DNA of 64,000 bases, from assembly GCF_037893015.1 (NCBI RefSeq), contig NC_133666.1, forward strand, positions 2,447,467 through 2,511,466, read 5' to 3'. This document shows positions 28,263 through 56,173 of this stretch, in pieces (positions within the stretch are counted from its first letter, which is position 1; each line of letters starts with the position of its first letter). Under the pieces are notes generated by a model. The model had not been told where the DNA came from. It saw only the letters and a list, made by a program, of their open reading frames with translations, and did not search any database. This stretch comes from Macrotis lagotis. Taxonomy: Eukaryota; Chordata; Mammalia; Peramelemorphia; Peramelidae. The position numbers and the translations under genes were made by a program.

Positions 28263-28307
28263 GAGGGGGTCTAAAGGAAATGGAGAACGAGGAGCCATAA
28301 TACATAC

Positions 28308-32765: not shown

Positions 32766-32815
32766 AATAAAAGGGGGCGGGCTGCCGGCGCGCGCCCGAG
32801 CCAATCCAAGATGGC
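32766..32815 (+). promoter_or_regulatory. BRCC3: BRCC3 core promoter elements around the start
   Basis: AATAAAAGGGGGCGG (from 32766) combines a TATA-like ATAAAA with a GC box. GAGCCAATCC (from 32798) contains a CCAAT motif, and CCAAGATGGCC over the ATG resembles a YY1 site. If the TATA-like motif is used, the 5' UTR would be very short. The motifs are seen; their use is inferred. Confidence 0.4.
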
Positions 32816-32915
32816 CGTGCTGGCGGCGCACTTCCACTCGGACGCCTTCCTGGTGGCCCTCAACCATGCCCTGAGCACCGAGAAGGAGGAGGTCATGGGG
32901 CTCTGCCTGGGCCAG
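32811..32915 (+). CDS. BRCC3: BRCC3/BRCC36, coding exon 1
   Basis: 35 codons: MAVLAAHFHSDAFLVALNHA then LSTEKEEVMGLCLGQ, donor CCAG|GTGAGG. BRCC36 is the JAMM/MPN+ zinc deubiquitinase that cleaves K63-linked ubiquitin in the nuclear BRCA1-A complex (with Abraxas) and the cytoplasmic BRISC complex (with ABRO1). The catalytic glutamate (human E33) is E27 here, in STEKEEVMG. The start has A at -3 and G at +4. Human has a few more N-terminal residues. Exons in this window give residues 1-152; the coiled-coil C-terminal half lies beyond 64000. The body is clearly BRCC36 but more diverged from human than expected. Confidence 0.96.
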
Positions 32916-34587: not shown

Positions 34588-35499
34588 ATATCCTTTTGGA
34601 AACGGTCTAACAAGGGAGCTTAGGGAAGGTCCAGGGGCTACCCTGAATCCCCACCCCCTTAGTCCTCCCCTTTGTCTGGTTAGGGACACCGCAAAGACAG
34701 AGCCCACTATGGGCTGCCCCCCCCCCCAAGGAGTGTGAGGGGATTGCCTGGAGCACCTGCGGGGGCTGGGCAGCTGCCCTCACACCTGCTGCTGTCCCCT
34801 GAACACCCTGAGTGAGCCTTGGGGATTTCTACAAGATTCTTCACCATCCCACTAAAGCTGTTCTAGAAGAAAGGGCCCAAGTGGTAAGGACAGGAATGAG
34901 GAAACAGCAGGGAGGAAGGAGCAGAAGCCATTAGAGATAGAAATCTCTCACAAGCTAGAAGAGAAAAACAGTTTGGAGGCACAGGGTTAATGGAAAAAGT
35001 GATCATGGGGAGGGAGTTAAAACAGTAAATGCTTTTTAAAAGCACATGAGCAATCCCACTTAATTTAAGAGCACAAGCCTCGATCACACACACATGTGCA
35101 CATCCACATACATAGCTACCTCCACAGCCATACCCACATATAGCTAAATACTTTCTCACTGTTCAGATTGGCCTCCAATCCTCTCCTTCATCATCTCCCT
35201 CCCATCTTACACAAAAACACTAAAAAATGCTGCTCAAGAAAAATCAGAATACTTTTGACTCTGCCACCAGTCAGGGCTGTGACCTTGGGCAGTTGATTAG
35301 AAGTTGCCAGACTGCCCCCGTGGGGAGAGACAACAGGGAATCTTCTACCCAGATGCAATTCCAGATTCAAAGTACAAAAAAGCAAAAGAGGGCCACAGCA
35401 TCCTCAGGGGTGTCATAGAAATTAAAAGCCCATTGGCAAGAAACATTCTGTACTCCCTCCTCTGATGTACCTCTCCCATTCAGGCTCTGCTGAGAAAGT

Positions 35500-36290
35500 T
35501 TGAGAAGATGTCCCTATCCCTAGGAGAGGAAGTAGATACAGTCCTTAAGAAGTCAAACCACAAAGGGGAAAAAAGACATGGGGTGATAGTGGGGCTAGAT
35601 GGATCAAGTTTTTGAGGATGGGAGAGAGACATGAGTATGTTTGTGGACAGGAGGGAAGCAGTCAGGAGATGGGGAGAAACTGAAGATGACTGAGAATGGG
35701 GATGAGAGAAAAAGGGACTGTTGGAAGAGATGGAATGCGGGGGGGTTGTTCTTGTGGAAGGACTGAGCCCCTTTTAGCGTGTGTGAAAGGTAAAGGACAA
35801 GAGTAGACCAGAAAGCCCTTGGAGTGACCCAACAAGAGGAAGATGGGAGCATGGGGTGCTCATGGCCTCAATTTTTTTAATGTGAATTATTGAGACAGGA
35901 TTCCCAGCTGAGGAGGAAGGGGAGCCTTGGGAGATGTGAAGAGGCATGAGAAACTTTGAAAGAGCTGCTGTGGACTGGGAGAGTATCATGATAAGGCAGG
36001 CAGAGTAGGATGGCTTGGCAGCTGTGAGGGCTATAAGTTTTAGTGAACCCCAAAATGCTCAAGTGATTTTCTCCATGTTGTTCAGGAGCATGTGGGTAGG
36101 AGCAAATGGAAGGAATGTTGGGAGTGATCCAAGGCTGAGACTTGGCTAGGAGTAAGCAGGGAAACATGATAAGGGCTTCAGGGACTCTAGGGGAGGGAAG
36201 GGCCGACTTGATCTTATTTATGAAGGAGTCAGGACAGGCAGAAGAGGAGGATGCGTGGTTAATGTAGAGAACTGAGGGAGGCAAGTGATG
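35500..36290 (-). mobile_element. Old L2 LINE fragment, antisense
   Basis: Read on the minus strand, the Ser/Pro/Leu/His-rich frame at 35877-36284 and the pyrimidine-rich phrases resemble the L2 ORF2 region upstream of the RT core (CTCATGTCTCTCTCCCATCC near 35615-35640). Assigned by resemblance to L2 text, not by intact motifs. 34600-35500 shows nothing assignable. Confidence 0.45.
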
Positions 36291-36436
36291 GGATGTCAGA
36301 CTTCAGACAAACAGTTCACTTTAGAAAAGGGAAGGCAGAAGGAGAGGAAAAGCCTATAGGGGATTTCAGAATTCCTGATCACAGAGCTGGGACATTGAGG
36401 GGTGATGACAGGATCAAGGATCTGTGACCTTCTTTA

Positions 36437-36591
36437 TTGATTTCTTTTTTCATTTTTGGGTTTATTGGCAAGGCAGTAGGGTTAAATGCCGAACGCCACA
36501 TAGCTACGAAATAGATGTCTGAGGCCGGATTTGAACTCAGGGCCTCCTGACTCCAGGGCCGTGCTCTATCCACTGCACCACCTAGCCGCCC
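36437..36591 (-). repeat. tRNA-derived SINE
   Basis: TTATTGGCAAGGCAGTAGGG to GCACCACCTAGCCGCCCC, flanked by CTGTGACCTTCTTT at 36422 and 36591. Confidence 0.92.
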
Positions 36592-37384
36592 CTGTGACCT
36601 TCTTTGTGCGTGGCTGAGGTGGGATGGAAGAGGAGGTCACCCCCTCTATGATTTCTCATTTTCTGATTTGCTGTTGTTGCTAACTTTGCCCATCAGATGG
36701 ATGAGATCAATCCTCAGGATTGCTTTCCTAGACATTCTCTAGTTATTAGTGATTTAGCTAATTCAGGGGGTGGTTCTCGATAGCTTGGGTTTCTTCCCTT
36801 GTTTATCGACTCTGCCCATCTATTCATTGGGGAGTGAATGGTTTTCATTCTTAGAAATTAGAATCAATACCTTCTATATCTTGAAAATGAGAGGAATTTG
36901 CTAGACAGTTAAATATTGCCATTTTAATCAGAACTGCCTTGGGTTTTTGGGGCAACAACTTTGCTCCCAGTCCATGTATCCATTTGGAGCTTCTCTTAAC
37001 ACATGATGGGGGGGGGGGGGCAGGGGTCTTGCTCTAAATCTATTTCCTGCTAGACCATTGGCCATTTTTCTCAGCATTTTGGGTCAGAATGGGGAATCCT
37101 GCCCCCCCCCCCAGAGTCAATATTCAGCTACCCCCTTTGTTTTGTGGTTCTTGTTGTCTCGCTGATCTGTTCTACTGATAGACCTCTGTTATTTTTTAGC
37201 TGTTCTGAAATTGTTTGAATAATTAACTAGGCCTCCCTCCTTCCCACTTTGGTGGGGGAAATTTTTTACCTTCTTATTCCTCCAAATGAATTTCATTTTC
37301 TTTTGTAGCTACCAAAGTAATCCTTGGGGAAGTTGATTTGTATGGCATGGGATAAGTTAATTTTGTTAGTAATCTTATTCTATT

Positions 37385-37620
37385 AGTTTGGCCTGTTGTT
37401 CAGTTTTGACTGACTCTGGACCCCATTTGATTTTGGGACAGACAAAGATACTGGAGTGATTTGCCATTCCAATTCTCCAGCTCATTTTACAGATGAGGAA
37501 ACTGAGGTAAACAGAGTTAAATGACTTTCCCTGTCACACAGCTAGTTAGTTTCTGAAGCTAAATTCGAACTCAAGTCTACCTGACTCCAGGCCTGGGGCC
37601 TGTCATGGCCTATCCCTGAG
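37385..37620 (-). repeat. Composite tRNA-RTE SINE
   Basis: GGCCTGTTGTTCAGTTTTGAC, TACTGGAGTGATTTGCCATTCC, CTCATTTTACAGATGAGGAA, then a diverged tRNA part. Reverse complement of the type at 2711-2940. Confidence 0.8.
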
Positions 37621-37647
37621 CAACGCAAATTTTCCAATATTTCAGTC

Positions 37648-37808
37648 TGTCATTTTTTTTTTAAGGTTTTGGCAAGGCAAAATGGGGTTAATTGGCTTGC
37701 CCAAGGCCACACAGCTAGGTAATTATTAAGTGTTTGAGGCCCTATTTGAACTCAGTGACTCCTGACTCTAGGGCTGGTGCTCTACCCACTGCGCCATCTA
37801 GCTGCCTC
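37648..37808 (-). repeat. tRNA-derived SINE
   Basis: TTAAGGTTTTGGCAAGGCAA to GCGCCATCTAGCTGCC, flanked by TCTGTCATT at about 37646 and 37807. Confidence 0.92.
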
Positions 37809-38374
37809 TGTCATTATTTCTGTAAACAATTATATTCCTAGAATTCTTGGGTATGTGTTTAGAGATAGATTCCCAGGTACTTTATGTGCTCAGTAAGTTT
37901 TTTGAATGAAATTTCTCTTTCTGGCTCTTCTGACTGACTCTTTGGGGTAACAGAAATGCCGATGGCTTATTGTGAGTTAATTTTCTAGTCTTCACATTTG
38001 CCAAATTTCTCATCTTGAAGAAGTTGTAGCTGTCTCTGTAGGATTCTCTAAGTATATTTTCGTGTCATGGACCAAAACTGATCATTCTGGTTTTTCATTT
38101 GTCTGTGTATTTTCTCATTTCCTGGTTCTCTTCCTATTGTGATAGCTAACATTCCTAGCTCAGCATCATAAAAGTTCTGATACTTAGACATCTTGGCTTT
38201 ACCCTTTATCTTATTGGGAAGGCCTCTCATTTACATGTGATGGGGAATCTGGCTTTGGGGGGGGTATGTATTTACCAGGGAAAGGTCATTTATTGCGGTG
38301 TGTTTGTGTGTGTATGTGTGTATGTTTTAACAGAAATGGATGTTGGATTTGATGAAGGTGCAGGCAATTTGGGG

Positions 38375-38630
38375 AAGCCCTAAGTCTGAATCCGACCTCA
38401 GACAATCCATAGCTGTGTGACCCTGAACCAGTTAGTCACTTGACCCTTCTGTGCCTCGATGTAAAATGGGAATGACACTTATCTCTCAGGGTGGTCAGGA
38501 GGAGAAAACTAGATCATCTCTGTCAAAAAATTGTGAAACCTGGTTACAAATACTATAAAATACTACTACTACTACTACTACTTATTATTATTATTATTAT
38601 TATTATTAATTAGGTCTATTCTGTTTATAG
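38375..38630 (+). repeat. MIR-like relic followed by (ACT)n and (TTA)n
   Basis: CTAAGTCTGAATCCGACCTC and CATAGCTGTGTGACCCTGAAC mark a sense MIR-like element (about 38375-38540). It is followed by (TAC)n at 38562-38581 and (TTA)n at 38583-38610. Confidence 0.75.
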
Positions 38631-38639
38631 ATTTCCCAA

Positions 38640-40725
38640 TCTTTTTTTAAAAATTTATTTATTTTGAATTTTACGATTTTCCCCCCTAATCTCGCTTCCC
38701 TCCCCCCACCCCCACCCCCCCACAGCAGGCAGTCTGTTAGTCTTTCCATTGTTTCCATGGTAGGCATGGATCTGAGATGAATGTGGTAAGAGAGAAAACG
38801 TATCCTTAAGGAAGAAAAGTAAAGGATATAAATATATAATATAGAAAATAGAAAATGTGAAAATAGAAAAATAGGGAGGGAAGCGAGATTAGGGGGAAAA
38901 CTGTAAAATAGAAAATAAATAAAATATTTAAAAGGAAAAAAAAGTATAAGAGATAGGAAAATCATATAATAATTTTTTTTTAAATTAAAGGTAACAGTCT
39001 TTGGTCTTTGTTTAAACTCCCTAATTCTTTCTCTGGATACATAATGGTATTCTCCATTGCAGACAGCCCCAAATTGTTCCAGATTGTAACCCTGATGGAA
39101 TGAGCGAATTCCATCAAGGTTGATCATCACCCACATGTTGCTGTTAGGGTGTACAGTGTTTTTCTGATCCTGCTCATCTCGCTCAGTATCAGGTCATGCA
39201 GATCTCTCCAGGCTTCCCTGAATTCCTGTCCCAGTGGTTTTATCTGCAAAAGCTTTTTAATTTAATGTAATCGAAACCATCTAGTTTGTTTTTAATGACG
39301 TTCTCCATCTCTTTCTTGGTCATAAACTGATTCCCGTGCCATAGATGTGACAGGTGAACTAGTCCTTGATCTCCTAGTTTGCTTGTAATATTGTCTTTTA
39401 TGTCTAAATCCTGTATCCATTTGGATCTTATCTTGGCATATGGTGTGAGGTGTTGGTCTAATCCAAGTTTCTTCCATACTAACTTCTAATTTTCCCAAAA
39501 GCTTTTATCAAAGAGAGCGTTTTTAGCCCAGAAGCTGGACTCTTTGTTTATCCAACAGTAGATTATTATAATCCTTTCCTGCTGTCTCTTTTGTACCTAG
39601 TCTATTCCCCTGATCTGCCACTCTTATTTTCTTAGCCAATACCAGACAATTTTGATTACTGATGCTTTATATCATTTTATATCAGGTAGGGCTAAGCCAC
39701 CTTCTTTTGCACTTTTTTAAATTAAATCCCTGGAAATTCTTGACTTTATTTCTTCATATGAATTTACTTACAATTTTTTTCTAACTCATCCAAGTAATTT
39801 TTTGGAATTTTGATTGATAGGGTGGTAAACAGGTAGTTTAACTTAGGTAGAATTGTCATTTTGATTATATTAACTCAACTTATCCATGAGCAGTTTGTAT
39901 TTGCCCAGTTTTAGAAATCTGATTTAATTTGTGTGAGAAGTGTTTTATAAGTGTTTTCAAAAAGTTTCTGAATCTGCCTTGGCAGGTAGACTCCCAGGTA
40001 TTTTATGTTGTCTGAGGTGACTTTGAATGGGATTTCTCTTTCTAGCTCTTTCTGCTGTTTCTTGCTAGTCATATATAGAAAAGTTGAGGATTTATGAAGG
40101 TTTATTTTATATCCTGTGATTTTGCTAAAGTTGCTAATTATTTCTAGTAGTTTTTTAGATGACTTTTTTGGGATCCTCTAGATATACCATCATGTCATCT
40201 GCAAAGAGTGAGAGTTTTGTCTCTTCCTTCCCAGTTTTAATTCCTTCAATTTCTTTTTCTTCTCTAATTGCTGAGACTAACATTTCTAATACAATATTGA
40301 ATAGTAGTGGTGATAATAGGCTTCCTTGTTTCACCCCTGATCTTATTGGGAATGCCTCTAGCCTATCCCCATCACATATAATGCTTGTTGATGGTTTCAG
40401 ATAGATACTGCTTATTATTCTAAGGAACAGTCCATTTATTCCTATACTCTCTAGTGTTTTTAATAGGAATGGATGCTGTATTGTGTCAAAAGCTTTTTCA
40501 GCATCTATTGATAAGATCATATAATTTCTGATAGGTTTGTTGTTGATATAATTGAGTATACTAACAGTTTTCCTAATATTGAACCAACCCTGCATTCCTG
40601 GCATAAATCCTACTTGATCATAGCATATTATCCTAGTGATAACTTGTAGTAATCATTTTGCTAAGATTTTATTTAAGATTTTTGTGTCTATATTCATCAG
40701 GGAGATAGGTCTATAATTTTCTTTA
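38640..40725 (-). mobile_element. LINE-1, antisense, with an internal deletion
   Basis: The 3' UTR and ORF2 end (38640-39225) are joined at about 39226 to ORF2 sequence that in other copies lies some 650 bp further in, so this copy carries an internal deletion. The minus-strand frame 40155-40604 shows RT motifs: [25 protein letters not shown] and [14 protein letters not shown] with the FADD catalytic box. A short sense L1 3' tail (GGAAGCGAGATTAGGGGG, about 38870-38940) is inserted inside its antisense 3' UTR. It is dead as a whole. Confidence 0.88.
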
Positions 40726-40732
40726 TTTTTTT

Positions 40733-41831
40733 TTAATTTTAGAAAGGTTTTATTTATTTTGAGTTTTGCAATTTTTACCCAATCTCGTTTTCCCTCCCAC
40801 CCCACAGAAGGCAGTATCTTACTCTTTTCATGAGTATGGATTGATCTAAGTTGAATGTGATGAGAGAGAAATCATATCCTTAAGGAAGAAACATATAGTA
40901 TGAGATATAACCAAATTACATAAGACAAAATTTTTTAAAAATTAAAGTTAATAGACTTCGGTCTTTGTTCAAACTCTACAGTTGTTTCTCTGGATACAGA
41001 TGGTATTCTCTATCATAGACAGCCCCAAATTGTCCCTAATTGTTGCACTGATGGAACGAGCAAGTCTATCAAGGTTGATCATCGCCCCCATGTTGCTGTT
41101 AGGGTGTACAGTGTTATTCTGGTTCTGCTCATCTTGCTCAGCATCAGTTCATGCAAATCCCTCCAGGCTTCCCTGAAATCCCGTCCCTCCAGGTTTCTAA
41201 TAGAACAATAGTGTTCCATGACATACATAGACCACAGTTTGCTAAGCCATTCCCCAATTGATGGGCATTCACTTGATTTCCAATTCTTTGCTACCACAAA
41301 CAGGGCTGCTATAAATATTTTTGTACAACTGATGTTTTTACCTTTTTTCATCCTCTCTTCAGGATATAGACCAGGAGCAGTATTGCAGGATCAAAAGGGA
41401 TGCACATTTTTGTTGCCCTTTGGACGTAGTTCCAGACTGCTCTCCAGAAAAGTTGGATGAGTTCACAACTCCACCAACAATGTATTAGTGTCCCAGATTT
41501 CCTACAACCCTTCCAACATTGATCATTGTCCTTTCATATTGACCACTCTGAGAGGTGTAAGGTGGTACCTCAGAGAAGCTTTCATTTGCATTTCTCTAAT
41601 CAGTAATGATTTAGAGCAATTTTTCATATGACTGTGGATCACTTTGATCTCCTCATGTGTAAATTGCCTTTGCATATCCTTTGACCCATTGTTAATTGGG
41701 AATGGCTTTTTTTTTTTAAATTTGAGTCAGTTCTCTATACATTTAGAAGTAAGTCCTTTGTCAGAAATACTACTTGTAAAGATTGTTTCCCAGTTTACTA
41801 CATTTCTTTTGATCTTGTTTACAGTGGTTTT
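40733..41831 (-). mobile_element. LINE-1, antisense, 3' part of a copy split by an LTR element
   Basis: L1 3' UTR (GGTTTTATTTATTTTGAGTT), then the ORF2 C-terminus (MEHYCSIRNLEGRDFREAWR on the minus strand). It runs to ACAGTGGTTTT, where the LTR element begins. The text resumes at 48745 with GTGCAAAAGCTTTTTAA, exactly what follows in the uninterrupted copy at 47095-47120. The two parts are one L1. Confidence 0.9.
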
Positions 41832-41835
41832 ATCT

Positions 41836-42499
41836 TGCTGAACCCAAAGAGCGAGCTGGACACCAGCATTGGATCAGTTTGGAGATCTTTCATGTCCCGG
41901 GGACTGCCTGGGGATAAAGAATCCCCAAATCAGACAATCTCTGAGTGTTCAGGAGATAGGGTTTTTCAGTGGGGTTTTTTTGGGGGTGGTGGTACTGAGA
42001 GCAAGCAGGAGACAGAAGCAAAGGCAGCAGTTAGATATATTTTCTTGTCATACTACTCCAAACATATGTAAACATGTGGTCCAGGATAGATAGGGGACTA
42101 GACAGAGTGGGGAAAGGTCAGGGTCTCTGTGTTCTGTCTGAACATGGTTCCTGAGATGGAGGGAGTCACATATTCCAGGACTTCCCATAGGTTTAAGGGA
42201 GTTGAATTTACTATCTTATGGTTCCAGCCTCATCTGGGGAGGGGGAGGCAGTCCTGGGAGGAAGCCGGAATTTTACAGATACAGCAAGATAATGAGATAA
42301 CCAGGGTGCTTTGTGAATCTTGGACAAATTTATGATATGTCGGTGACCCCCGGAGCCAAGCATTTGGGTCCTGTCAGATTATTTTCAGACCCAAAGGCGC
42401 TTAGCCAAAATTTTATTTCTGAGGAGTTTCTTGGGGCCCAGGAAGGTATCAAGGACCCCTTCTATATAGGGATTACACAAATATGGATATTGTACTTCA
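41836..42499 (-). repeat. Left LTR (3' LTR on the minus strand)
   Basis: 664 bp with TG...CA ends (TGCTGAACCC to GTACTTCA on +). It shares about 90% identity with the partial copy ending at 48740. Confidence 0.85.
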
Positions 42500-45400
42500 T
42501 TCCCCACTTTTTTTTCAAAATAACTCAAACCATTAAGTTATCCTCTTCATAACCTGGGTAAACATGAACTACAAGCATTTTTACAAAGCATCCAGGTATC
42601 ATCCTTACATCCCAATCCACCTTTCTCTTTAAGTTGTACAGACCAGCTAAATCAGAGATAAGACTCTTCTTAGAGAGGATCTACACACTCATACCACCCA
42701 ATGGTCTCCCTCCTTTTCTTTCAATGGAGAACATCTCCGCCCTGTGTCTCCTCTTAAGGAGAGGGGCCTAAGTAGGGGTGTCACACTTACAGAATCAAGG
42801 GGATGTTACCAAAAACAGATCCCCTGACTACACAATGCATACATAGGTGAGAAATGGTAGAGAGGAACTGGTCCAGTGTCTCTCCTCTCTTCTCTTCTTT
42901 CCTGGACACCTCCAATGTCCTTCTGCATCTCCTGAATCAGTTCTATAAAGTCCTTTCCAGCTCTGGTGACTTGTTGAGACCTTGTCTTCTGGTACAGAAC
43001 CTGCCTTAACGTTTTCCTCAGACCAAAACACAGGTTTTCCTCACAAGACAATGAGATTCTGGAGCTTATTACAATTTGCATTTTGCTTTATTGCCTTATT
43101 GCCACACATACTTCACTTTAACACAGTAAACTTCCATTAGTGTTGTACTACAGCAGCAAACCCCCAATGAGAATGATCATCCTGTCCTAAGCTTGTAACG
43201 TACATTCAACAATCCTCTTCATTCAGAGTACTCGGCATCTGGTTTAAAATCAAACAATCTTAGCCTTTGCTCATATTACAATAATGGCTCAAACATCCTT
43301 AACCAAAATAAAATTTTTCAAAATATTCCCAAATATACCATTGACTTTCCTTTTTCCTGTTTATCTGACTCGCCTTCCTTTCCTTAAACTAGGCCTTAAA
43401 ACTGATTATCCTAAGAATTTCCCATTCTTCTTCTTACCCAAATATCCCTTCTCAATAAAATTAAAGAAACTTAATTCCTATCTTAACTTGTAGCTGTTAG
43501 CAGTGTCAGAGCCACACACCAGACACACCTAACCTATCTCTGGCGAATAGATCCAGTTCGCCTAAAACTTTCTTTTTCTGATTTGCTTAGTAGCGGTACA
43601 GATCCAGGACATCAAAGGGAAATTCCCTTATAGGTATTGAATATCAGTGTCCAGGCAGAGGTCATGTGGGTAGTCAGATGTCTTAGGCCAGATTTATTCT
43701 TCCAGGTGAGACATTATCCAAATGTCATTCTGGGGAAATCAAGTCAGAAGGGTCCAACCTCAGGCCATACTGAGATGCTGCCCCTTTGGCTGCCCATCCC
43801 AGTCACCTGACACCTTGGCTTCTTTGGCTCCAAGAACATGACATTTACCCAGTAGCATTTCCTTTTGCTGACCATCCTGGTATCTGATATAAAAGAAAAT
43901 CAATTACAAGTCCCTGGATCTAAAATAGTTGTTTTACCTAATTAGATCTCCAAGTGAATCCACTTCACAATTTAGATTGGGGGGGAGGGTCACAATCAAT
44001 CAGCTCCCTTCCTTACACATAGATTACCTGTATGTACTCTGAGTGGCCCTGTCATTAGAATACATTAAATAGGGTTACTTTCTAAACATTCAAAAAGCAG
44101 TCAAGTTCTCCCAGGATCTGGAGTATCCCTTGAGAGATTTGAGCTGGAAAGGCAGGGCCATTGTCTGACCTGATTCCTAGCAGGAGGCCAAATCATGGAG
44201 GGGCTCATTCAGAATTTTTTAAACTACTTCCAAGGCTGTTTCATTAGCTTCTCCCCATTCTGAAAATGTGCCAACAAAACCCAGGAGATATTCACTACCT
44301 GCTGCAGGTGTTTTTACTGTCTCTCTGTTGTTTTTGTGATAAGAATTGTTCTGCCAGTTCCCCACCATCCTCCTGTTGCCTTCTTCTATCCCTTTTGATT
44401 CCCTGAAGGAATCTTCTGAGGGGGAGGTAGGTTGGTTCAGGGGGAGACAGAACAGGATTTTTCCATCTAGGAATGTTCATTCCCTTCCCTGCTCTTGTAT
44501 ACCCCCCCCCCCCGCTTTTGATCTAGCGAAGGGGGAACAGACAGGACCCGGTGACAGGGGTACGGGGATGGATTTGGGAATTTTGGGGAATTCAGGGGCT
44601 GAGGTCTCTAAATGTAACAAAACAGTAATAAGTGTACCACATGAAGAACTAGATTTCACAAAATAATCTGTCCATTATTACATTTATACCTGGACCTACA
44701 GATCTAGAGCAAGGTCCAACACATCATTTAAAAGTTCAGGGAACCCAGAGGGTCATGCTTTGATAATTTCCCTCATTAAAGCAATTGATCATTAATTCCA
44801 GCTTTGACATCATTACAGTCAAATAGGTTATATTTCCAAAAGCATATCACATGTTTGATAACACCCTTCAATCTTACTCATGATAAGTCATCTAATTAGG
44901 GATACCGAATTTTAATTGAAGGAAGAAATGTACAATTTAATTCTTTAAAATGTAAACATTAAATTCTTAACCTACGTGAAACATAAGGTTTTCATGCTGA
45001 CATCTCATTCTCTTAAAGCAACAGAAAACAACAGGTTCTCTGAAAGTTAACCTTAGAATGAAGTATCTTTTCCACACAAACCTCTTCTGAATTTTTGCTT
45101 TATAACTTATTTATCTCTTCTTCCAAATACACTTCTGTTTTCAAAATGAAGGATAAAGATTCTCCATGAATTTAGTCTTATGCCTATGATAATTTCAAAA
45201 GCCCGATGTACACTTTTTACCCATGACAGTGTAATATTTCCATAGATAATTTCTTCTTCTTAAATAATAGATAATAGGCTACATTGATCCCACATATCAG
45301 TATTCTCTTTCATAAACATGAGGTGAAAAACAAAGCCTTTCACAAAATCTCTGGGCCAAAATGACCTTGAGAGATATAACCTTGTTGGCAAGGTGTTCCC

Positions 45401-45815
45401 TAGGGTTTTTTTTTCCATAACCAATCTTTACAAATGTGGTAGATGAAACTTTAATTCATTCACAGTTTGTTATTACAAAACAATTTTAGTCTCAAAAAGC
45501 ATAGCTTAAACTGTTGTTATACAAAGTTGACTAAATTTCAATTACACATGTGTTCCCTGTTCCCTTTGCTCCCTAAAACTTTAAGATACAAAGAATTCTT
45601 AAGACCAATTGTTGCTAAAAAAAAAAAACCCTTCTTATACCTACAAGATTTTCTTTATACTTCTCTGAAATTCCAAAAGTCAAATTCAAATTAACTTTAA
45701 ATCATTTTCTTTTCAAAGCCTGAAAAGTTTGCAAATTCTTCTCATCTTTATCAGTGTAATTCTAAGTTCTCAGTGCTCTCACTTATAGCAGCTTAGTATC
45801 CTCATTGAGACCACC
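42500..45815 (-). mobile_element. Decayed interior of the LTR element
   Basis: Follows the left LTR after a polypurine tract. No gag, pol or env domain is recognisable in what is left, so coding content and family are uncertain; part could be unrelated DNA. Confidence 0.5.
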
Positions 45816-45990
45816 ATTTTTTTTTAGGTTTGTTTTTTTTTTTTGCAAGGCAAATGTAGTTAACAAGTGACTTGCCCAAGGCCACACAGCACACAGCTAG
45901 CTAATTATCAGGTGTCTGAGGCCAGATTTGAACTCAGGTATTCCTGACTCTAGGGTTGGTGCTCTATCCACTGTGCCACCTAGCTGCCCC
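45816..45990 (-). repeat. tRNA-derived SINE inside the LTR element
   Basis: Two T-runs around TTAGGTTTG, then TTGCAAGGCAAATGTAG to GTGCCACCTAGCTGCCCC. A short ACACAGC duplication sits inside. Confidence 0.92.
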
Positions 45991-45991
45991 C

Positions 45992-48180
45992 TCAGTGGTA
46001 GTTTTCAACAATAGTTTTTGTGCAGGGTATCAGGTATTACATTTTACATTTTTTCCCTCCCTCCCTTTTCCTTCCCCCTCACCCTGACAGAAGGTAATCT
46101 AATATAGGCTATACCTACATAACAATACTAAATATGATACTCGTAATTCTTTTTTTGTATGAGATAGTAAAATTACACAATAATATAATGCTTTTTTTCT
46201 AATTTTACTGTAATAGTCTTTGGTCTTTGTTCAATGTCCACAGTTCTTTCTTTAGATACAGACAGTATTCTCCTTTGCAGACAGCCCAAAATTGTTCCCG
46301 ATTGTTGCACTGATGGAATGAGCGAGTCCATCAAGGTTGGTCATCACCCCCCGTGTTGCTGTTAGGATGTACAATGTTTTTCCTGTTCTGCTCATCTCAC
46401 TCAGTATCCGTTCATGCAAACCCCTCCAGGCTTCCCTGAATTCCCATCCTTCCTGGTTTCTAATAGAACAGTAGTGTTCCATGACATACATAGACCACAG
46501 TTTGTTAAGCCATTCCACAATTGAAGGACATTTACTTGATTTCCAATCTGTTTCCACCACAAACAGAGCTGCTATAAATATTTTTGTTCAAGTGATGTTT
46601 TTGCCCTTTTTCATCCTCTCTTCAGGGTATAGACCCAGTAGTGGTATTGCTGGGTCTAAGGGGATGCACATTTTTGTTGCCCTTTGGGCATAATCCCAAA
46701 TTGCTCTCCAGAAAAGTTGGATGAGTTCACAGCTCCACCAACAATGTGTTAGTGTCCCAGATTTCCTGCATCCCTTGCAACACTGATCATTGTCATTTCC
46801 GGTCATATTTACAAGTCTGAGAGGTATGAGGTGGTATCTCAGAGATGCTTTAATTTGCATTTCTCTAATAAGTAATTATTTGGAGCAATTTTTCATATGA
46901 CTATGGATTTCTTTGATTTCCTCATCTGTAAATTGCCTTTGCATATCCTTTGATCATTTGTCAATTGGGGAATGGCCTTTTTTTTTTTTAAAATATGACT
47001 CAGTTCTCTGTATATTTTAGAAATGAGTCCTTTGTCAGAAATACTAGTTGCAAAAATTGTTTCCCAGTTTACTATATTTCTTTTGATCTTGGTTACAGTG
47101 GTTTTGTCTGTGCAAAAGTTTTTTAATTTAATATAGACAAAATTACCTAGTTTGTTTTGATTGATGTTCTCTATCTCTTCCTTAGTCATAAACTGTTCCC
47201 CTTTCCATAGATCTGAGAGGTAAACTACTCCTTGATCTTCTAATTTGCTTATAGTATTGTTTTTTATGTCTAAATCATGTATTCATTTGGATCTTATCGT
47301 GGTATAGGGTGTGAGGTGTTGGGCTAATCTAAGTTTCTTTCATATTAACTTGCAATTTTCCCAGCAGTTTTTATCGAAGAGAGAGTTTTTATCCCAATAG
47401 CTGGGCTCTTTGGGGTTTATCAGACAGCAGATTACTATAATCGTCTCCTGCTTTTGCACCTAGTCTCTTCCATTGTTCCACCACTATTTCTTAACCAATA
47501 CCAGGCAGTTTTGATGACTGATACTCTATAATATCATTTTAGATCAGGTAGGGCTAAGCCACCTTCTTTTGCACTTTTTTTCATTGAATCCCTGGAAATT
47601 CTTGACTTTTTATTTCTCCATATGAATTACTTACAACTTTTTCTAACTCGTTAATTTTTTGGAATTTTGGTTTGGTAGGGCACTAAGCAGGTAGTTTAGT
47701 TTTGGTAGAATTCTCATTTTTATTATATTAACTCGACCTATCCATGAGCAGTTGATGCTTGCCCAGGTATTTAAATCTGATTTTCTTTGTGTGAAAAGAG
47801 TATTGTAATTGTTTTCAAAAAGTTTTTGAGTCTGACTTGGCAGGTAGACTCCCAAGTATTTTATTTTGTCTGAGGTGACTTCAAATGGGATTTCTCTTTC
47901 TAGCTCTTTCTGCTGTATCTTGCTAGTCATACATAGAAATGTTGAAGATTTATGAGGGTTTATTTTATATCCTGCAACTTTGCTAAAATTGCTGATTGTT
48001 TCCGGTAGTTTTGTTGATGACTTTTGGGGATCCTCTAGGTATACCATCATGTCATCTGAAAAGAGCGAGAGTTTTGTCTCTTCCTTCCCAATTCTAATTC
48101 TTTCAATTTCTTTTTCTTCTCCTATTGCTGAGGCTAAAATTTGTAATATGACATTGAATAGTAGTGGTGATAATGGGCAA
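45992..48180 (-). mobile_element. LINE-1, antisense, inserted in the LTR element
   Basis: 3' UTR (46000-46250), ORF2 C-terminus (MEHYCSIRNQEGWEFREAWR), the EN/RT-distal part and RT motifs up to [14 protein letters not shown] and SPLLFNVILQIL (minus strand, 47643-48284). The uninterrupted reading of TGGTTTTGTCTGTGCAAAAG near 47100 is the template that proves the other L1 was split. The 5' end stops at the right LTR. Confidence 0.88.
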
Positions 48181-48740
48181 GGGGATAGGGTTTTTATAGT
48201 GTTTTTTGGGGGGGATACTGAGAGCAAGAAGAATCCAGAAGCAAAGATAGCAGTTAGATATATTTTCTTGTCATAGTACTCCAAACATATGTAAACATAT
48301 GGTCCAGGATAGACAGAGGACTAGATAGAGTGGGAAAGGGTCAGGGTCTTTGTGTTCTGTCTGAACATGGTTCCTGAGACAGAGGGAGTCACGTGTTCCA
48401 GGGCTTCCCACAGGTTTGAAGCAGTGAAATTTACTCTCTTATGGTTCCAGCCGCATCTGGGGAAGGGCAGGCAGTTCTGGGAGGACGCTGGAATTTTACA
48501 GATACACCAAGATAATGAGGCTAACGGGGGGGGGGGGGGGGGGGCTTTGTGAATCTTAGACAAATTTATTGTGTATCTATGACCCCCCCCCCCCAGTCAA
48601 GCATTTGGGGCCTGTCTGATTATTTTTGGACACAAGGGTGCCTAGCCAAATTTATATTTCTGAAGAGTTTCTTGGGGCCCAAAAAGGTATCAAGGACTCC
48701 TTCTATACAGGGATTACACAAATATTGATATTGTACTTCA
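48181..48740 (-). repeat. Right LTR (5' LTR on the minus strand), partial
   Basis: Matches the left LTR from about 41955 to 42499. The portion next to the L1 at 48180 is missing. Contains a 17-base G-run near 48526 and a C-run near 48583. Confidence 0.85.
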
Positions 48741-48765
48741 ATCCGTGCAAAAGCTTTTTAATTTT

Positions 48766-48927
48766 TAATTTTTTAGGTTTTTTTTTTTTTTGTTAAGGCA
48801 ATGGAGTTAAGTAGCTTGCCCAAGGCCACACAACTAGGTAGTTATTGAGTGTCTGAGGCCAGATTTGAACTCAGGTACTCCTGACTCCAGGACTGGTGTT
48901 CTATCCACTGTGCCACCAAGCCGCCCA
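48766..48927 (-). repeat. SINE in the split L1
   Basis: Well-preserved antisense copy with target duplication AAGCTTTTTAATTT on both sides. Confidence 0.95.
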
Positions 48928-49194
48928 TAAAGCTTTTTAATTTAATGTAATCAAAATCATCCAGTTTGCTTTTAGTGATGTTCTCCATGTCTTCCTTGGT
49001 CATAAACTGCTTCCCTTTCCATCAATCTGACAGGTAAACTATTCCTTCATCTTCTGATTTGCTTATATTATTGTTTTTTATGTCTAAATCCTGTATCCAT
49101 TTGGATCTTATCTCAGTATAGGGTGTGAGGTGTTGGTCTAATGTAAGTTTCTTCCATACTAACTTCCAATTTTCCTGGCAGTTTTTATTTTATT

Positions 49195-49346
49195 TTATTT
49201 AGGTTTTTGCAAGGCAAATGGGGTTAAGTGGCTTGCCCAAGGCCACACAGCTAGGTAATTATTAAGTGTCTGTGACCGGATTTGAACCCAAGGTACTCCT
49301 GACTTCAGGGCCAGTGCTTTATCCACTACACCACCTAGCTGCCCCT
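49195..49346 (-). repeat. SINE in the split L1
   Basis: TTATTTAGGTTTTTGCAAGG to CACCACCTAGCTGCCCC, with flanks sharing CTG(G/C)CAG and TTTTTATT. Confidence 0.95.
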
Positions 49347-49496
49347 GCCAGCAGATTTTTATTGAAGAGAGAGTTTTTATCCCAAAAGCTGGACTCTTTG
49401 GGTTTATCAAACAGCAGATTACTATAATCGTTTCCTGCTATCGCACCTAGTCTATTCCACTGATCTACCACTCTATTTCTTAGCCAATATCAGACA

Positions 49497-49652
49497 TTTT
49501 TTTTTAGGCTTTTGCAAGGCAATCGGTGTTAAGTGGCTTGCCCAAGGCCACACAGCTAGGTAAATTATTAAGTGTCTGAGACTGGAATTGAACCCAGGCA
49601 CGCATGACACCAGGGGCTGGTGCTTTATCCATTGCGCCACCTAGCCGCCCCT
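49497..49652 (-). repeat. SINE in the split L1
   Basis: TTTTTTTTTAGGCTTTTGCAA to GCGCCACCTAGCCGCCCC, flanked by TCAGACA followed by a T-rich stretch. Confidence 0.95.
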
Positions 49653-50935
49653 CAGACAATTTTGATGACTGATACTTTATAATATAATTTTAGATCTGGT
49701 AAAGCTAAGCTACTTTATTTTGTACTTTTTTTTTCATTAAATCCCTGGAAATTCTTGACTTTTTATTTCTCCATATGAATTGACTTACAACTTTTTCTAA
49801 CTCATTAAAGTAATTTTTTGGAATTTTGATTGGTAGGGCACTAAGCAGGTAGTTTAGTTTTGGTAGAATTGTCATTTTTATTATATCAGCTCGGCCTATC
49901 CATAAGCAGTTGATTTTTGCCCAGTTATTTAAATCTGATTTAATTTGTGTGAGAAGTGTTTTATAATTGTTTTGAAAAAGTTTCTGAATCTGCCTTGGTA
50001 GGTTAGACTCCCAGGTATTTTATACTGTCTGAGGTTACTTTGAATGGGATTTCTCTTTCTAGCTCTTCCTGCTGTATCTTGCTCGTCATATATAGAAAAG
50101 TTCACGATTTATGAGGGTTTATTTTATATCCTGCAACTTTGTTAAAATTGCTAAGTGTTTCCAGTAGTTTTTTGGATGATTTCTTGGGATTCTCTAGGTA
50201 GACCATCATGTTATCTGCAGAGAGTGAGAGTTTTGTCTCTTCCTTCCCAATTCTAATTCCTTCAATTTCTTTTTCTTCTCTAATCGCTAATATTGATATT
50301 GAATAGTAGTGGTGATAATGGGCACCCTTGTTTCACCCCGATCTTATTGGGAATGCCTCTAGCCTCTCCCCATTGAATATAATGCTTGTTGATGGTTTCA
50401 GATAGATACTGCTTCTTAGTCTAAGGAACAGTTCATTTATTCGTACACTCTAGTGTTTTTAGTAGGAATGGGGGCTGTATTTTGTGAAAGACTTTTTCAG
50501 CATGTATTGATATAATCATGATTTCTGGTAGGCCTGTTACTGATATAATTAATTATCCTAACAGTTTTCCTAATATTGAACCAACCCTGAATCCCTGAAA
50601 TAAATCGTACTTGGTCATAGTGTATTATCCTAGTGATAACTTGTTGTAATCAATTTGCTAAGATTTTATTTAAGATTTTGGCACCTATATTCATCAGGCA
50701 GATAGGTCTAGAATTTTCTTTCTCTGTTTTAACTCTTCCTGGTTTAGGTATCAGCACCATATTGGTGTCATAGAAAGTGTTAGGCAGAGTTCCATCTTTC
50801 CCTATTTTTTCCGAAGAGTGTAGAATTGGAACTAATTGTACTTTAAATGTTTGACAGAATTCACTTGTGAATCCATCTGGCCCTGGCGATTTTTTTCTTA
50901 GTGTAATATTACTTTTTCTAACCATTTTTTTGGCA

Positions 50936-51300
50936 AAGTTTTGAGTTTGACATTTTCTTCCCTCTGCCCCCGACAGAAAGCAATCTGATTAGGGGCTCTA
51001 CATTTATTACCAACATTCAGTTTCTTCTGATATCCCATGACATTTGTATATCCAAGCCACCACCCAATCAGTGGCTCCAACTCTCTGTTCTTTGATGGTA
51101 CAAAAATGACTGCTCTAAATGACTTTGTCAGTGACCTCTTTGGGGTGTAAGCCCCTAGTCATGAGTTGTCCTAGTCAAAGGGCATGGATGTTTTCATCAT
51201 TTTATTTGCATCATTCCAAATTGCTTTCCATCTGCCAGTATTTATTAAGCACCAACCCCTTGCTAGAGCTGGGCTAAGACAAAGATCCAGTATTCCTTAG
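50936..51300 (-). mobile_element. Very old LINE-1 3' end
   Basis: CACCCAATCAGTGGCTCCAA, AAATGACTGCTCTAAATGAC, CATTCCAAATTGCTTTCCATC, in the order of an antisense L1 ORF2 C-terminal region but strongly diverged. Confidence 0.45.
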
Positions 51301-51529
51301 GAAGGGAATAAAACATTGACATGGCCAAAGGAATGCCAGGGGATGCAGGGCAAGGCGGGATCAGAAGCAGTTGGCTGGATTCCCAAGAGTCTCATGGAGG
51401 AGTTGACAGTTGGAAGGAGGAAATCCAGCTTCTCAGATAGAGGTGAGGAAGGAGTGTGTTCCAGGCCTCTGCCAAAGGTGGGAGACAGGAGAAAATGACT
51501 TCACAAATGTGTTACTTGGTCTGTTTATT

Positions 51530-52025
51530 TATTATTAAGAGCTTTTATTCGATAATGATGTTATTATTTTTTATTGGGAGTTTTTATTTATCTTTAATTG
51601 GCCAATATCTACCTTCTCTTTTCCCCCTCCCTTTGCTAGAACTTGCCGGTCCAATTGAAAACATTAGAAAAAAATCACCCATCCGTTATACATGTCTAAC
51701 CTATCCAAACAAAGTTCTGTGTTGGCCAGTCCACAGAATCATGACACTCTCTCAGGAACTGGGGAACTTGTTTTGTTGTTTGAATCCTACTTGAGCATTC
51801 CACAACAGTTTTCTGTCATCATTTGTTCATCTGTTTCCCAATTTATGGACACCCCCGCAGATGCCTATTCTTTGCCACCTCAAAAAAGAGCTACAGATAT
51901 TTTTGTATAGCCTTAGGGTTCGTTTCTGACTTAGGACTTGTTTAGGGCTCTCTGAAGTTTCTCTTCCTCTAAAGCATTCTCTTCTCCTCCTCTTTCCTTG
52001 TTGAGCAAAATGGGTTTCTGCACCC

Positions 52026-52117
<92 letters not shown>

Positions 52118-53011
52118 TTGTTTTCCCTAGAATGAGAGTTTGAATAGAGAATGAGTTTCCAAATGGAGGCCACTCCCCTCAACACTCACCTCAACACTCA
52201 CCTCCTTATTTGTATAGATGTCACCTTGTATACCCTGATTATGTAAAAATAATTGTCCCTAACCTCCCTTTCCTACTTCTCTCTCTCTTTTCTTCCTCTT
52301 CTACCTGCCTCCCCCCACTCCCCCAAGTATATTCCTCTTTCTCCCTTCTTAAGCTCATGAAGACATAATAGAACCCAACCCCACCTGCACTTTGTCTCCT
52401 TGAGCTTCCTCTATGGCCCCTGGTCATGACAATTCCAGGAAATCCAAACAGATCATCTCCTCATATTTGATCGGAAGCAGTTGATCCTTGGTCAAGCCTT
52501 TGTCATTGTCGATTCCTATTTGCCTTTATGTGCTGCTCTTGAGTCCTGTATTTATAATTCAAAGTTTCTCCTCAGCTGTGGGCTTTTCATCAGGAATCCT
52601 TGGAAGTCTTCTTTTATTCCAGGTCCATTCCATCTCCCCCAACCCCTTCCCCATGGCATTATGCTCAACTTTGTTGGGTATGGTGTAGCCTTTGTTTTCT
52701 GGAATATCCGATTCAAAATTCCCTGCTCCTCAGGGTGCTGGCTTCCTAAATTGTGGTCCATGAACTGGGTGTCTCTGGCTGCCTGCAGTTAGTTTTGTCT
52801 TTTGCTCTGGTTATAATGTTCCTAGGAGTTTGCTTTGGAGATTTCTTTCAGGGGGTGGCTAGCAGATTCTCTTTCCAGTTTGCCCTCTGGTTCAGAGAGA
52901 TCTGATCACTTTTCTTCCCATATGATACCTAGCTTCTTTTTGTGCTCATGATGTTCAGGTAGCCTGATGATTCTTATATTTTTTTCTCCTTGGTCTGTTT
53001 TCCAGGTCCCC

Positions 53012-53053
<42 letters not shown>

Positions 53054-54330
53054 ATGAGATACCTTACACTTAGTAAATTAGTTTTTTTTTTTTTTTAGGT
53101 TTTTGCTTTTGTTTTCATTTTTCTTATTACCTTAGAGAATTATTGTTACCTGGCAAAGTTCTATACCTCTTGGGTCAACCTCTTCATTCTCTTTCCAGTT
53201 CTTTCTTCCACAGCTCTCATATCTTTTCCCATTTTCCCCTCTAGCACTGACCTTCCATTTCTAATAACTTTTTTTTTTTAGATTTTTTTGCAAGGCAATG
53301 ATGTTAAGTGGCTTGCCCAAGGCCACACAGCTAGGTAATCATTAAGTGTCTGAGGTCGAATTTGAACTCAGGTCCTCCCGACTCCAGGGCCGGTGCTCTA
53401 TCCACAGCGCCACCTAGCCGCCCCTCTAATAACTTCTTTAAAAAGAAACAGAAACCTCTTGCTTCATATCTTCCAGGAAGAGTTAAGTTTGTGCCCAAGC
53501 TGCAGTTTCTCTCTGAACCTTTGGTTGCAGATGTTTTGGAGCCCTTCTCTTCTGGCTCTTGAGCTTTCCTGCCATCCTAATAGTCCACTAAGGTGGAATT
53601 CTTTTTTGTTTTCCTTTTTTTGCAGCCTACTTCTGACTTCACAACTTCTGGAGGGAAGATCTGGGCAGGTCCTCTTGCTGTTCCTTTGAGTATGGTGTTA
53701 TCTAGGATCTCAGGAGCACCTTGAACTGGAGACCTACAAGCTTTTGGTGCTCCCAAAGGGATCTGATCCCGGATGAAGTCTGCCTGCTTTCTCTGCGCCG
53801 CCGCCCCCCCCCCCCCCCATGAGAGTTCCTTCACCTTCCTGATCTAGTTTGGAACAACAAGAAGCTTTCATCGGGCTTAGCCACAACCAGCCAGCTAGCA
53901 AACTGTATTGGTTCAAAGTGATAGAATTGTCAGCTCCCCTTTGGTTTGGGATGTCCCACTCTGGGACCCCAGCTGCCCCACTGCTACTGCTGTCTTCGGG
54001 ATTTCCTTCTTTCTCCACCCACTGGCTTTGACCTCTCTCCTCAGGAACATTATTCTTCTCTGCAGATTCCCTTCCTAGCCTGTCCTGGATCTGTGCCTCA
54101 ATTTTTGTCGTTTGCCAGGCTCAGGATTTGGTCTGGTGCATGTTTTCGATCTGTTTGGAGAAGAGCATGGAAGGGATCTCTCACCCACCCCTCTCTTCCT
54201 CCCAGTCTGCCTTCTTGCCTCTGTACTCTCCAAATATCCAGTAGCTGTTGTGGGCCTAGCGCCCTCAAGGTTGCCTGTCTGGGTATCATCTGTGTAGAGC
54301 ACGAGAGTTGATGAGTTCACTAAAAGAGGA
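51530..54330 (-). mobile_element. Old LINE-like element, antisense
   Basis: Phrases CCCAATTTATGGACACCCCC, AAGAGCTACAGATATTTTTG, CCTTGGTCAAGCCTTTGTC, AGGAATCCTTGGAAGTC and CAACTTTGTTGGGTATGGTG recur, diverged, in the same order at 59640-60710, so the two are copies of one family. Contains (CT)n/(TG)n at 52027-52114, a T-run at 53011-53050 and a C-run at about 53805. Extent to the right is uncertain. Confidence 0.5.
53266..53425 (-). repeat. SINE in the old LINE-like element
   Basis: Antisense copy with an 11-bp target duplication TCTAATAACTT at about 53259 and 53426. Confidence 0.95.
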
Positions 54331-56068
54331 TATAGAGAGGGGAGAGTGGGGGTGGGGGCTCAGGCCAGAGGCCAAGGCCTGGAGACTGATTAGTCAGGTG
54401 GCACCTCGGAGTCACTTCCATTTTCATTTCTCTAACTACTAGTGATTTTGAGCAGGGTTTTTTTCCCCCGATGACCATTGATGTTTTGGATTTCTATCCA
54501 TAATCTGGGTAATTTAGGCCACCGGTTGCTAAACTAAGCTGGCTGCTCCGCCAGCTAGGGTGTTAGGAGCTTTGGATTTTGGATCATTGAGTTGGAGTCC
54601 TGGCTTTGCAGTGAATCATTTGGGTAAAACTAGGCAGACTGCTTTCCCTTGAGGCCTCTGTTTCTTCATTTGCAAAATAGTGCTCCTTTGGTTTTGCTAC
54701 CATCTCTCTTGGGATTCAGATGCCAGAGGAAACTCTGATAGAGTCATAAGAACTTCACCAATGGGTAACTGGGTGGGCTTGGAAGCAAACTCCAGGAGCA
54801 GGGCCTCCATGACAAATTGGAAGTGGCCGATTCACCCTTTTCACAGATGCTGTGTCTCCCTTCTGGAAATTTGGGCCACCCCACAAACAAAGAAGGCTGG
54901 CAACTGTGGCTTGGGACTCAGAGACTCTGGCTTTCTCAGACTCAGATCACTTTGAACAGGGGAATCTCCGGGTCACAGTTTCCTTGTCTGTATACCAATC
55001 CATTTGGGCTAGAGAACCTCTGAAGTACATTCTGGCTCAAAAGCTAGGCTTAAATCCTGGCAGTTGCTCCTTCCTCTCCTGAGACCTGGTTTGGCCTCAA
55101 GCACCCACCCCAAAGTCATTACCTGCCTCTTCCACAGGGCGGGCAGGCAACTAGCTAGTTTTCGAGGAACCTGGTATCCTGGAATTAAGAGACTGTTGAA
55201 GGCTAAGAGGCAGATGATTAGAAAGTTGGGCCCTTTGCCTTGGCTTCCCAGGTCTCCTCTTCAAAGATCAGACTTGAGTTCTTGGCACATGTGCTCCTCA
55301 ACAGCCTTAGGATACCAAAATATTTGGGGTAACAAAGAACTGAAAACAGATTCGGTGCCCATCAGTTAACAAAGTGGTTAAACAGATTGCCAGAGAAACT
55401 TGGGGATACTTGTCTAAGAGAACAGAAGCAGGAAAATAGCCTAGCCAATGACTCTTGCAATGTATGGCTGGGAAAGGGTTAGGGTTAGCCTGAAGGCTGT
55501 GCCATCCTAGGGATTCATTATGGCCCTGAGGAGGGTTGAAGTGGGAAGGAAAGGGCTCCAGATTTGGCAGTGTCTTTCTGAAATCGTAGCTGGATTGACC
55601 TGAATCAATTGGATTAAGTTATGTGTAAATTCTTAGTCCATGATTCAGTCATAGTTCCGAGTGGTGTGTGACTGGCCTCTGTTCTACTACTGCCTGTTAG
55701 CTGTGCTAGCCTTGGGCAGAACTGTCCTCCTGCTGGCTCTGGTTTCTGTAAAATGTCTTCTGAGAACCCACTGAGGAAAGTCCTAGGCCTTTGAAAAAGA
55801 AGGCAACAGAGACTCAACTGGTCTACATCTGTAGGCTGGAGCCCCTGAGTCACTTAAGCCACCGAGGCAGGCCAAAGAAGGTCAGAGAAGGCAATGCCTG
55901 TGAGCTGGAACCCTAAACCAGACAATGAAAGGTGGTGGGTATGAATGCAAGAGTCCTTCAGGAAGCTGGGATCCTAGGAAAGACCTGGCCCCTTTGGGAC
56001 TGACCTGAAACCAGTCTTCAAGCTGTCCCTTCCACACACAGACCTGTGGTTTCTGCTTCGTCTAAAAT
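54331..56068. other. 3' part of BRCC3 intron 2, mostly unassigned
   Basis: One MIR-like relic (about 54570-54680: GAGTTGGAGTCCTGGCTTTG, TTTCTTCATTTGCAAAATAG). Otherwise no repeat, exon or RNA gene recognised before the branch site. Confidence 0.4.
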
Positions 56069-56085
56069 TTCCTGAACCATCTCAC

Positions 56086-56173
56086 AGATTGACTGTGCTG
56101 ACAGGTCGCTGCATGCAAATTGTGGGCTGGTATCATTCTCATCCCCACGTAACCGTGTGGCCTTCCCATGTGG
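56086..56173 (+). CDS. BRCC3: BRCC3, coding exon 3 (JAMM zinc-binding motif)
   Basis: 29 codons plus one base: RLTVLTGRCMQIVGWYHSHP then HVTVWPSHV and the first base of Asp105. This is the catalytic heart of BRCC36: H92 and H94 (HSH), S102 and D105 form HxHx10D, equivalent to human H122, H124 and D135, all intact. The acceptor is the U12 AC end described under the intron; the donor is a normal GTG-G|GTAAGT. Several otherwise highly conserved neighbours differ from human (GRPMRVV is GRCMQIV). Confidence 0.97.

What the first reader, a model, noticed from the sequence alone, without database searches (positions are those of the whole stretch)
34588..56085. A 21.5-kb U12-type AT-AC intron in BRCC3
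The intron opens with ATATCCTTT, a complete match to the minor-spliceosome AT-AC donor. It closes with a one-mismatch branch site TTCCTGAAC placed about 10 bases before an AC end. Joining the flanking exons restores the BRCC36 MPN domain in phase 0, whereas no GT-AG choice does. AT-AC introns are a very small class, and this one sits immediately before the exon carrying the zinc ligands, so catalytic activity depends on minor splicing. I do not know whether the same intron is annotated as U12-type in other vertebrates.
Basis: partly seen in the sequence, partly recalled or inferred. Interest (0 to 1): 0.88.

Follow-up and report, generated by a model that had tools for sequence, protein, structure and literature searches.

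The report
Minor-spliceosome intron in bilby BRCC3
The rare-type intron in this greater-bilby DNA-repair gene is real, but BRCC3 was already on record as carrying such an intron in people and plants; what looks newer is that the bilby also has an intact intronless copy of the gene that would not need that splicing step.

Summary
Intron 2 of BRCC3 (34588-56085, 21,498 nt, phase 0) starts ATATCCTTT and ends TTCCTGAACCATCTCAC; the gene's other six introns are GT-AG with poor matches to the U12 motifs. The eight-exon model translates letter for letter to the NCBI Macrotis lagotis BRCC36 record. One clause is overstated: a GT-AG pair (34605/56087) also keeps the frame, at the cost of a 5-residue insert. 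That BRCC3 has a U12-type intron is not new: U12DB lists it as one of only two U12 introns orthologous between human and Arabidopsis (PMC2831892). I could not check the AT-AC subtype elsewhere.

'Catalytic activity depends on minor splicing' does not hold for this genome as stated. G000 also has an intact intronless 261-codon BRCC3 on contig C5 encoding the canonical protein: 236 of 261 residues match turtle, against 184 of 261 for the window gene. It groups with seven other marsupials' proteins, apart from a fast-diverging clade that holds the window gene. Retroposition is a known route of vertebrate U12-intron loss; this looks like another case, with both copies still open. Expression is untested.

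The parts
32811..32915 (+). BRCC3 exon 1, coding part (start codon to CAG|gtgagg; carries the EEVMG segment with the catalytic glutamate, role recalled)
   Evidence: translation equals P0003
34468..34587 (+). BRCC3 exon 2, ends ..EAE in phase 0
34588..56085 (+). Intron 2, U12-type AT-AC, 21,498 nt, phase 0
34588..34596 (+). U12-type 5' splice site ATATCCTTT (9/9)
56069..56077 (+). U12-type branch site TTCCTGAAC (1 mismatch to TTCCTTAAC)
56084..56085 (+). AC 3' splice site; an AG follows at 56086-56087 and would shift the frame if used with the AT donor
56086..56173 (+). BRCC3 exon 3 with HSHPH and WPSHV zinc-site segment
58904..58992 (+). BRCC3 exon 4 (completes the SHVD motif)
60897..60952 (+). 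BRCC3 exon 5; exons 6-8 lie beyond the window end (window-equivalent 64404-64535, 66228-66271, 69028-69179, i.e. in L018)

Best explanation
This is the ancestral, intron-bearing BRCC3 gene of the greater bilby (Macrotis lagotis), next to MTCP1/CMC4. Its intron 2 is most likely the ancient, conserved U12-type intron of BRCC3, here with AT-AC ends, excised by the minor spliceosome: U11 and then U6atac (recalled) recognise ATATCCTTT, U12 pairs with TTCCTGAAC, and cleavage is after CAC. That joins the exon ending EAE to the exon carrying HSHPH and yields a JAMM/MPN+ K63 deubiquitinase. Shown: motifs, frame, and identity of the model with the public predicted protein. Inferred: splicing in vivo, and that this is the same intron as the one in U12DB. 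A reverse-transcribed copy, joined at this same junction, sits intact and intronless on another contig and encodes the conventional, slowly evolving BRCC36. So this genome encodes one BRCC36 that needs minor splicing and one that does not. Which one does the cell's main work is inferred only from conservation.
For: Motifs and frame. Full 8-exon model equals the NCBI protein P0003 over 261 of 261 residues, with six GT-AG introns and one AT-AC. U12 snRNA at 144.3 bits, U4atac at 114.4 and U11 at 115.3 are present in G000. U12 status of BRCC3 in human and Arabidopsis: PMC2831892 passage. Intronless copy: one frame of 261 codons, absent introns, DNA similarity to the window gene and its downstream 50 kb confined to exons plus many interspersed-repeat matches. 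Marsupial C5-type clade 8 of 8 rows and window-type clade 4 of 4 rows, both 100/100. Beside MTCP1/CMC4.
Against: No RNA reads were available. U6atac was not confirmed (six searches, none answered). The branch-to-AC distance of 9-10 nt is a little short; the AG two bases later sits at 11-12 nt. A GT-AG pair keeps the frame with a 5-residue insert. The NCBI model may itself rest on protein homology, so it is not independent of the frame argument. The tree does not place the two marsupial clades as sisters, but does not reject it (p-AU 0.419), and its bootstrap had not settled.
Confidence: 0.88

Rival explanations
1. The intron ends AT-AG: splicing goes to the AG at 56086-56087, or both acceptors are used, giving an unproductive isoform.
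For: AG follows the AC directly; branch A to this AG is 11-12 nt, nearer the published optimum of 11-13.
Against: It shifts the frame and loses HSHPH; AT-AG combinations are described as disfavoured (PMC3584512 passage); the C5 copy and the 11 other marsupial proteins fetched all keep EAERL without a shift.
Confidence: 0.05
2. An ordinary GT-AG intron (34605-56087) is used instead of, or besides, the U12 pair: a twintron-like overlap adding ISFWK between EAE and RL.
For: The frame stays open to HSHPH.
Against: The donor ACG|GTCTAACA is poor by the U2 consensus as I recall it; the insert is absent from P0003, the C5 copy and the 11 other marsupial proteins fetched; it would leave the 9/9 U12 donor and the branch site unexplained.
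Confidence: 0.03
3. The intron is AT-AC but is removed by the major spliceosome.
For: U2-type AT-AC introns exist (PMC2831892 passages).
Against: The U2-type AT-AC introns discussed there have G at +5; here +5 is C, the donor is 9/9 U12-type and a U12 branch site is present.
Confidence: 0.02
4. The window gene is a decaying copy whose splicing no longer matters, because the intronless copy has fully taken over.
For: 19 of 156 columns invariant in the 29 other sequences are changed only in the bilby window gene; terminal branch 0.45 against 0.058-0.069 in three other marsupial copies of its clade.
Against: Open frame over 261 codons, GT/AG or AT/AC at all 14 intron ends, EEVMG/HSHPH/SHVD kept; dN 0.19 against dS about 1.4 between the two bilby copies, although dS is near saturation and this averages both lineages.
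Confidence: 0.15

Closest known systems
BRCC3 U12-type intron of human and Arabidopsis (U12DB; PMC2831892)
   Same: Same gene, U12-type class, reported as orthologous across animals and plants.
   Different: I saw only the passage, not the U12DB record, so the exact position and the AT-AC or GT-AG subtype there were not compared.
AT-AC (A-type) minor introns, e.g. IPO5 intron 21 (PMC8280824)
   Same: U12-type with AT-AC ends; here with the ATATCCTT donor and U12 branch motif.
   Different: 21.5 kb long, branch-to-3'ss distance at the short edge. BRCC3 has 0 occurrences in that paper's main text; its datasets were not seen.
Retroposition of U12-intron genes, e.g. CCDC16 (PMC2831892)
   Same: An intronless copy removes the need for the minor intron.
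   Different: In CCDC16 the intron-bearing alleles were lost; here both copies are still open.

Membership tests
U12-type (minor) intron, AT-AC subtype | 5' splice site ATATCCTT | tested here: met
   ATATCCTTT 9/9 at the exon end
U12-type (minor) intron, AT-AC subtype | branch site close to TTCCTTAAC near the 3' end | tested here: met
   TTCCTGAAC, 1 mismatch
U12-type (minor) intron, AT-AC subtype | branch A to 3' splice site distance 11-13 nt (optimum) | tested here: inconclusive
   9 or 10 nt to AC
U12-type (minor) intron, AT-AC subtype | AC 3' end with frame and gap-free family sequence restored | tested here: met
   0 of 25 nearby GT-AG pairs do so without inserted or replaced residues
U12-type (minor) intron, AT-AC subtype | dependence on U11/U12/U4atac/U6atac in cells | not testable with these tools
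   snRNA genes U12, U4atac, U11 found; U6atac search unanswered
BRCC36 (JAMM/MPN+ K63 deubiquitinase) | MPN domain with EEVMG glutamate and HSHPH..SHVD (roles recalled) | tested here: met
BRCC36 (JAMM/MPN+ K63 deubiquitinase) | K63-ubiquitin cleavage | not testable with these tools
   needs an enzyme assay
Retrogene (C5 copy) | intronless, exon-only similarity, other contig | tested here: met
Retrogene (C5 copy) | poly-A tail and target-site duplication | tested here: inconclusive
   one run of 12 A at +1122 from the start codon; no search made for target-site duplications

The most novel reading that the evidence does not exclude
Australidelphian marsupials carry BRCC3 mid-way through escape from the minor spliceosome: an autosomal intronless retrogene has taken over the conserved K63-deubiquitinase role, while the X-type parent keeps its ancient AT-AC intron but diverges, very fast in the bilby, perhaps towards a new or sex-limited role. 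If so, BRCC36-dependent DNA repair in marsupials should resist loss of minor splicing, unlike in eutherians.
Probability: 0.35. Interest if true: 0.55.

Novelty: new member of a known kind. Interest (0 to 1): 0.33.

Why it matters
The intron alone adds one species to a known, anciently conserved case. The pair of copies is more useful: within one genome one BRCC36 needs minor splicing and one does not. That offers a natural control for asking whether BRCC3 intron retention contributes to minor-spliceosome phenotypes, and it may be a live example of the retroposition route by which vertebrates lose U12 introns.

Tried and rejected
Considered and rejected: that the window copy is a processed copy or a stray duplicate (it has seven introns and MTCP1/CMC4 beside it); GT-AG alternatives at the junction (25 pairs tried, 3 keep the frame, none gap-free; before that call I had judged by eye that none kept the frame, and that was wrong); that motif rarity alone proves the case (it does not). 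A path search for splice sites failed and was replaced by boundaries set from the sequence and checked against P0003. My confidence in the best explanation went from 0.90 to 0.88.

Literature. I looked for BRCC3 minor-intron data, an AT-AC statement for BRCC3, or a BRCC3 retrogene. I saw no report of a marsupial BRCC3 retrogene, but most papers found were seen as listings only (entirely so; one search listed 20 of 67 and one search listed 12 of 52; PMC2258195 was not opened). Passages were seen of PMC2831892, PMC12475092, PMC8345071, PMC8280824, PMC3584512 and PMC11239497; of PMC7367187 the outline with abstract and sections 17 and 18. In the passages of PMC12475092 and PMC8345071 nothing says that BRCC3 splicing depends on ZRSR2. 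A paper whose DOI I recalled is not held.

Not answered or open: FUN14 synteny and U6atac. No opossum (didelphid) entry was named among the 120 best rows of any of the three protein searches (730, 2057 and 2138 proteins passed the threshold), so the age of the retrocopy beyond the Australidelphian ancestor is open; clustering may also hide such entries. The tree used 29 hand-picked proteins of the 195 then listed, plus the C5 translation; left out among marsupials were P0041 (wombat, window-type, altered C-terminus) and P0123 (a second Petaurus isoform).
Full report
WHAT IS THERE. The stated ends are exact. Upstream exon 34468-34587 reads VEPNKIVSIHSVMVLRRSDKRRDRVEISPEQLSAATVEAE; downstream exon 56086-56173 reads RLTVLTGRCMQIVGWYHSHPHVTVWPSHV and one further base. 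Joined, they match eight PDB sequences, all BRCC36/BRCC3, at E 9.6e-33 to 8e-20, and the Pfam JAB model above its cut-off. With 50 kb of downstream sequence the gene has eight exons and seven introns. Its translation is identical to P0003, recorded by NCBI as BRCC36 of Macrotis lagotis on a contig of 704,739,007 bases, the same length as C9 here. Six introns are GT-AG; intron 2 alone is AT-AC.

CLASS OF INTRON. Donor ATATCCTTT has 0 mismatches; the other six donors have 3-7 to the nearer of the two U12 forms. The branch site has 1 mismatch; the best in the other six introns have 2-4. Only 3 of 63,991 plus-strand positions carry the donor word, and 6 of 2,892 AC ends carry a branch match in range, so finding both at ends fixed by protein homology is not chance. 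The distance from branch A to the end is 9 or 10 nt, just below the 11-13 nt optimum quoted in PMC3584512. An AG follows the AC immediately; used with the AT donor it would shift the frame. None gives the gap-free sequence seen in P0003, the C5 copy and 11 other marsupial proteins. U12, U4atac and U11 RNA genes are in the genome; U6atac could not be searched because the tool did not complete. For scale, 14% of U12 introns catalogued in opossum and 26% in human are AT-AC (PMC7367187 section 17), so the subtype is a minority but not exceptional. Mean intron length of both classes tracks genome size (section 18), so length alone is no mark of novelty.

ALREADY KNOWN. PMC2831892 states that of more than 200 Arabidopsis U12 introns only two are reported by U12DB to have orthologous human U12 introns, in EXOSC5 and BRCC3 (passage). 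I did not see the record itself, so subtype and exact position in human remain unchecked here; that it is the same intron is an inference. I found no held text giving BRCC3 retention data under minor-spliceosome loss (searches; passages); supplementary tables could not be read.

THE SECOND COPY. A protein search of G000 found one further clear BRCC3, at C5:219782756-219783211 minus strand, as a single open frame at 73% identity; the four remaining matches outside the window gene were 29-43% identical MPN relatives. The frame is 261 codons without introns. DNA similarity between its surroundings and the window gene is limited to exons and interspersed repeats. Across the junction it reads GAG GCG GAG CGC CTG, so the mRNA it was copied from joined EAE to R as the AC reading predicts. 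It lies in a CpG-rich block (CpG observed/expected 0.70-1.06 in 250-bp steps from 250 bp upstream to about 1 kb downstream of the start codon, against 0.34-0.37 further upstream), and all 261 of its codons end in G or C. Among the 120 best of 2138 protein matches none was identical to it; the best were 97%. It may be unannotated, or hidden by clustering at 90%.

WHICH COPY IS CANONICAL. The C5 protein shares 236 of 261 residues with turtle, mouse 245 of 261, the window gene 184 of 261. In a 30-row tree the C5 copy joins seven marsupial proteins (koala, wombat, Dromiciops, tammar, Petaurus, devil, Trichosurus) at 100/100. The window gene joins proteins of Sminthopsis, koala and Petaurus at 100/100, with a terminal branch of 0.45 against 0.058-0.069. 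Koala and Petaurus thus have both kinds, as the bilby does. Contigs are 78 and 90 Mb long for the koala and Sminthopsis window-type copies, and 275-540 Mb for five of the seven C5-type copies, which suggests X and autosome; the Petaurus window-type copy (4.4 Mb) and the wombat (6.8 Mb) and Petaurus (59 Mb) C5-type copies do not inform. Bilby has a compound X formed by fusion with an autosome (PMC11239497 passages); C9 at 705 Mb, ninth in the list, would fit, also an inference. MTCP1 and CMC4 lie upstream on the minus strand (28,097-28,668 and 24,104-26,721), the neighbours I recall from human Xq28, so the window holds the parental locus. Sister grouping of the two marsupial clades is not recovered but not rejected (p-AU 0.419); long branches make the position of the window-type clade unreliable.

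IS THE WINDOW COPY STILL A GENE? It keeps an open frame, GT/AG or AT/AC at all 14 intron ends, and the catalytic motifs. Of 156 columns invariant in the 29 other sequences, 19 are changed only here. The same count is 1 of 138 for each of the three other window-type copies, 0 of 137 for the C5 copy, 4 of 141 for Xenopus, and 2 of 139 each for tenrec and Polymixia (those backgrounds are smaller because they include the bilby row). dN 0.19 and dS about 1.4 between the two bilby copies argue against neutrality overall, but dS is near saturation and the retrocopy's extreme third-position composition distorts it. Relaxed constraint after retroposition, X-linked fast evolution and a new role all remain open.

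HOW IT WORKS AND WHAT IT CHANGES. The window transcript needs the minor spliceosome to join the EEVMG half of the active site to the HSHPH half. The C5 transcript, if made, does not. PMC2831892 reports that retroposition accounts for three of eight vertebrate losses of U12 introns, with CCDC16 losing its intron-bearing alleles afterwards. Marsupial BRCC3 looks like the same route seen before the parent is lost. This is a new example of a known process, not a new process.

Noticed in passing
L009:1171-1956 (-), G000 C5: All 261 codons of the intronless BRCC3 copy end in G or C (GC3 1.0; window gene 0.67), inside a CpG-rich block.
   Followed up: partly
   Followed up: yes
window 40155-40604 (-) and 47643-48284 (-): Open frames with reverse-transcriptase-like [10 protein letters not shown] text inside the AT-AC intron, probably LINE-1 remnants (named from memory).
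   Followed up: no
window 34588, 41674, 46943 (+); 19575, 38821 (-): ATATCCTTT occurs five times where shuffles give 0.8; the two extra plus-strand copies lie inside the intron and could be cryptic U12 donors.
   Followed up: no
window 34605 and 56087: A GT-AG pair overlapping the U12 pair keeps the reading frame with a 5-residue insert, a twintron-like arrangement by sequence.
   Followed up: partly
just after the BRCC3 stop, window-equivalent about 69180-69430 (L018): Downstream sequence is a run of imperfect short repeats (gtattaaagtggcccag-like) before AATAAA.
   Followed up: no
G000 C2:237027573-237027721 (L025): A second, weaker U12 snRNA-like copy (82.2 bits against 144.3), perhaps a pseudogene.
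   Followed up: no
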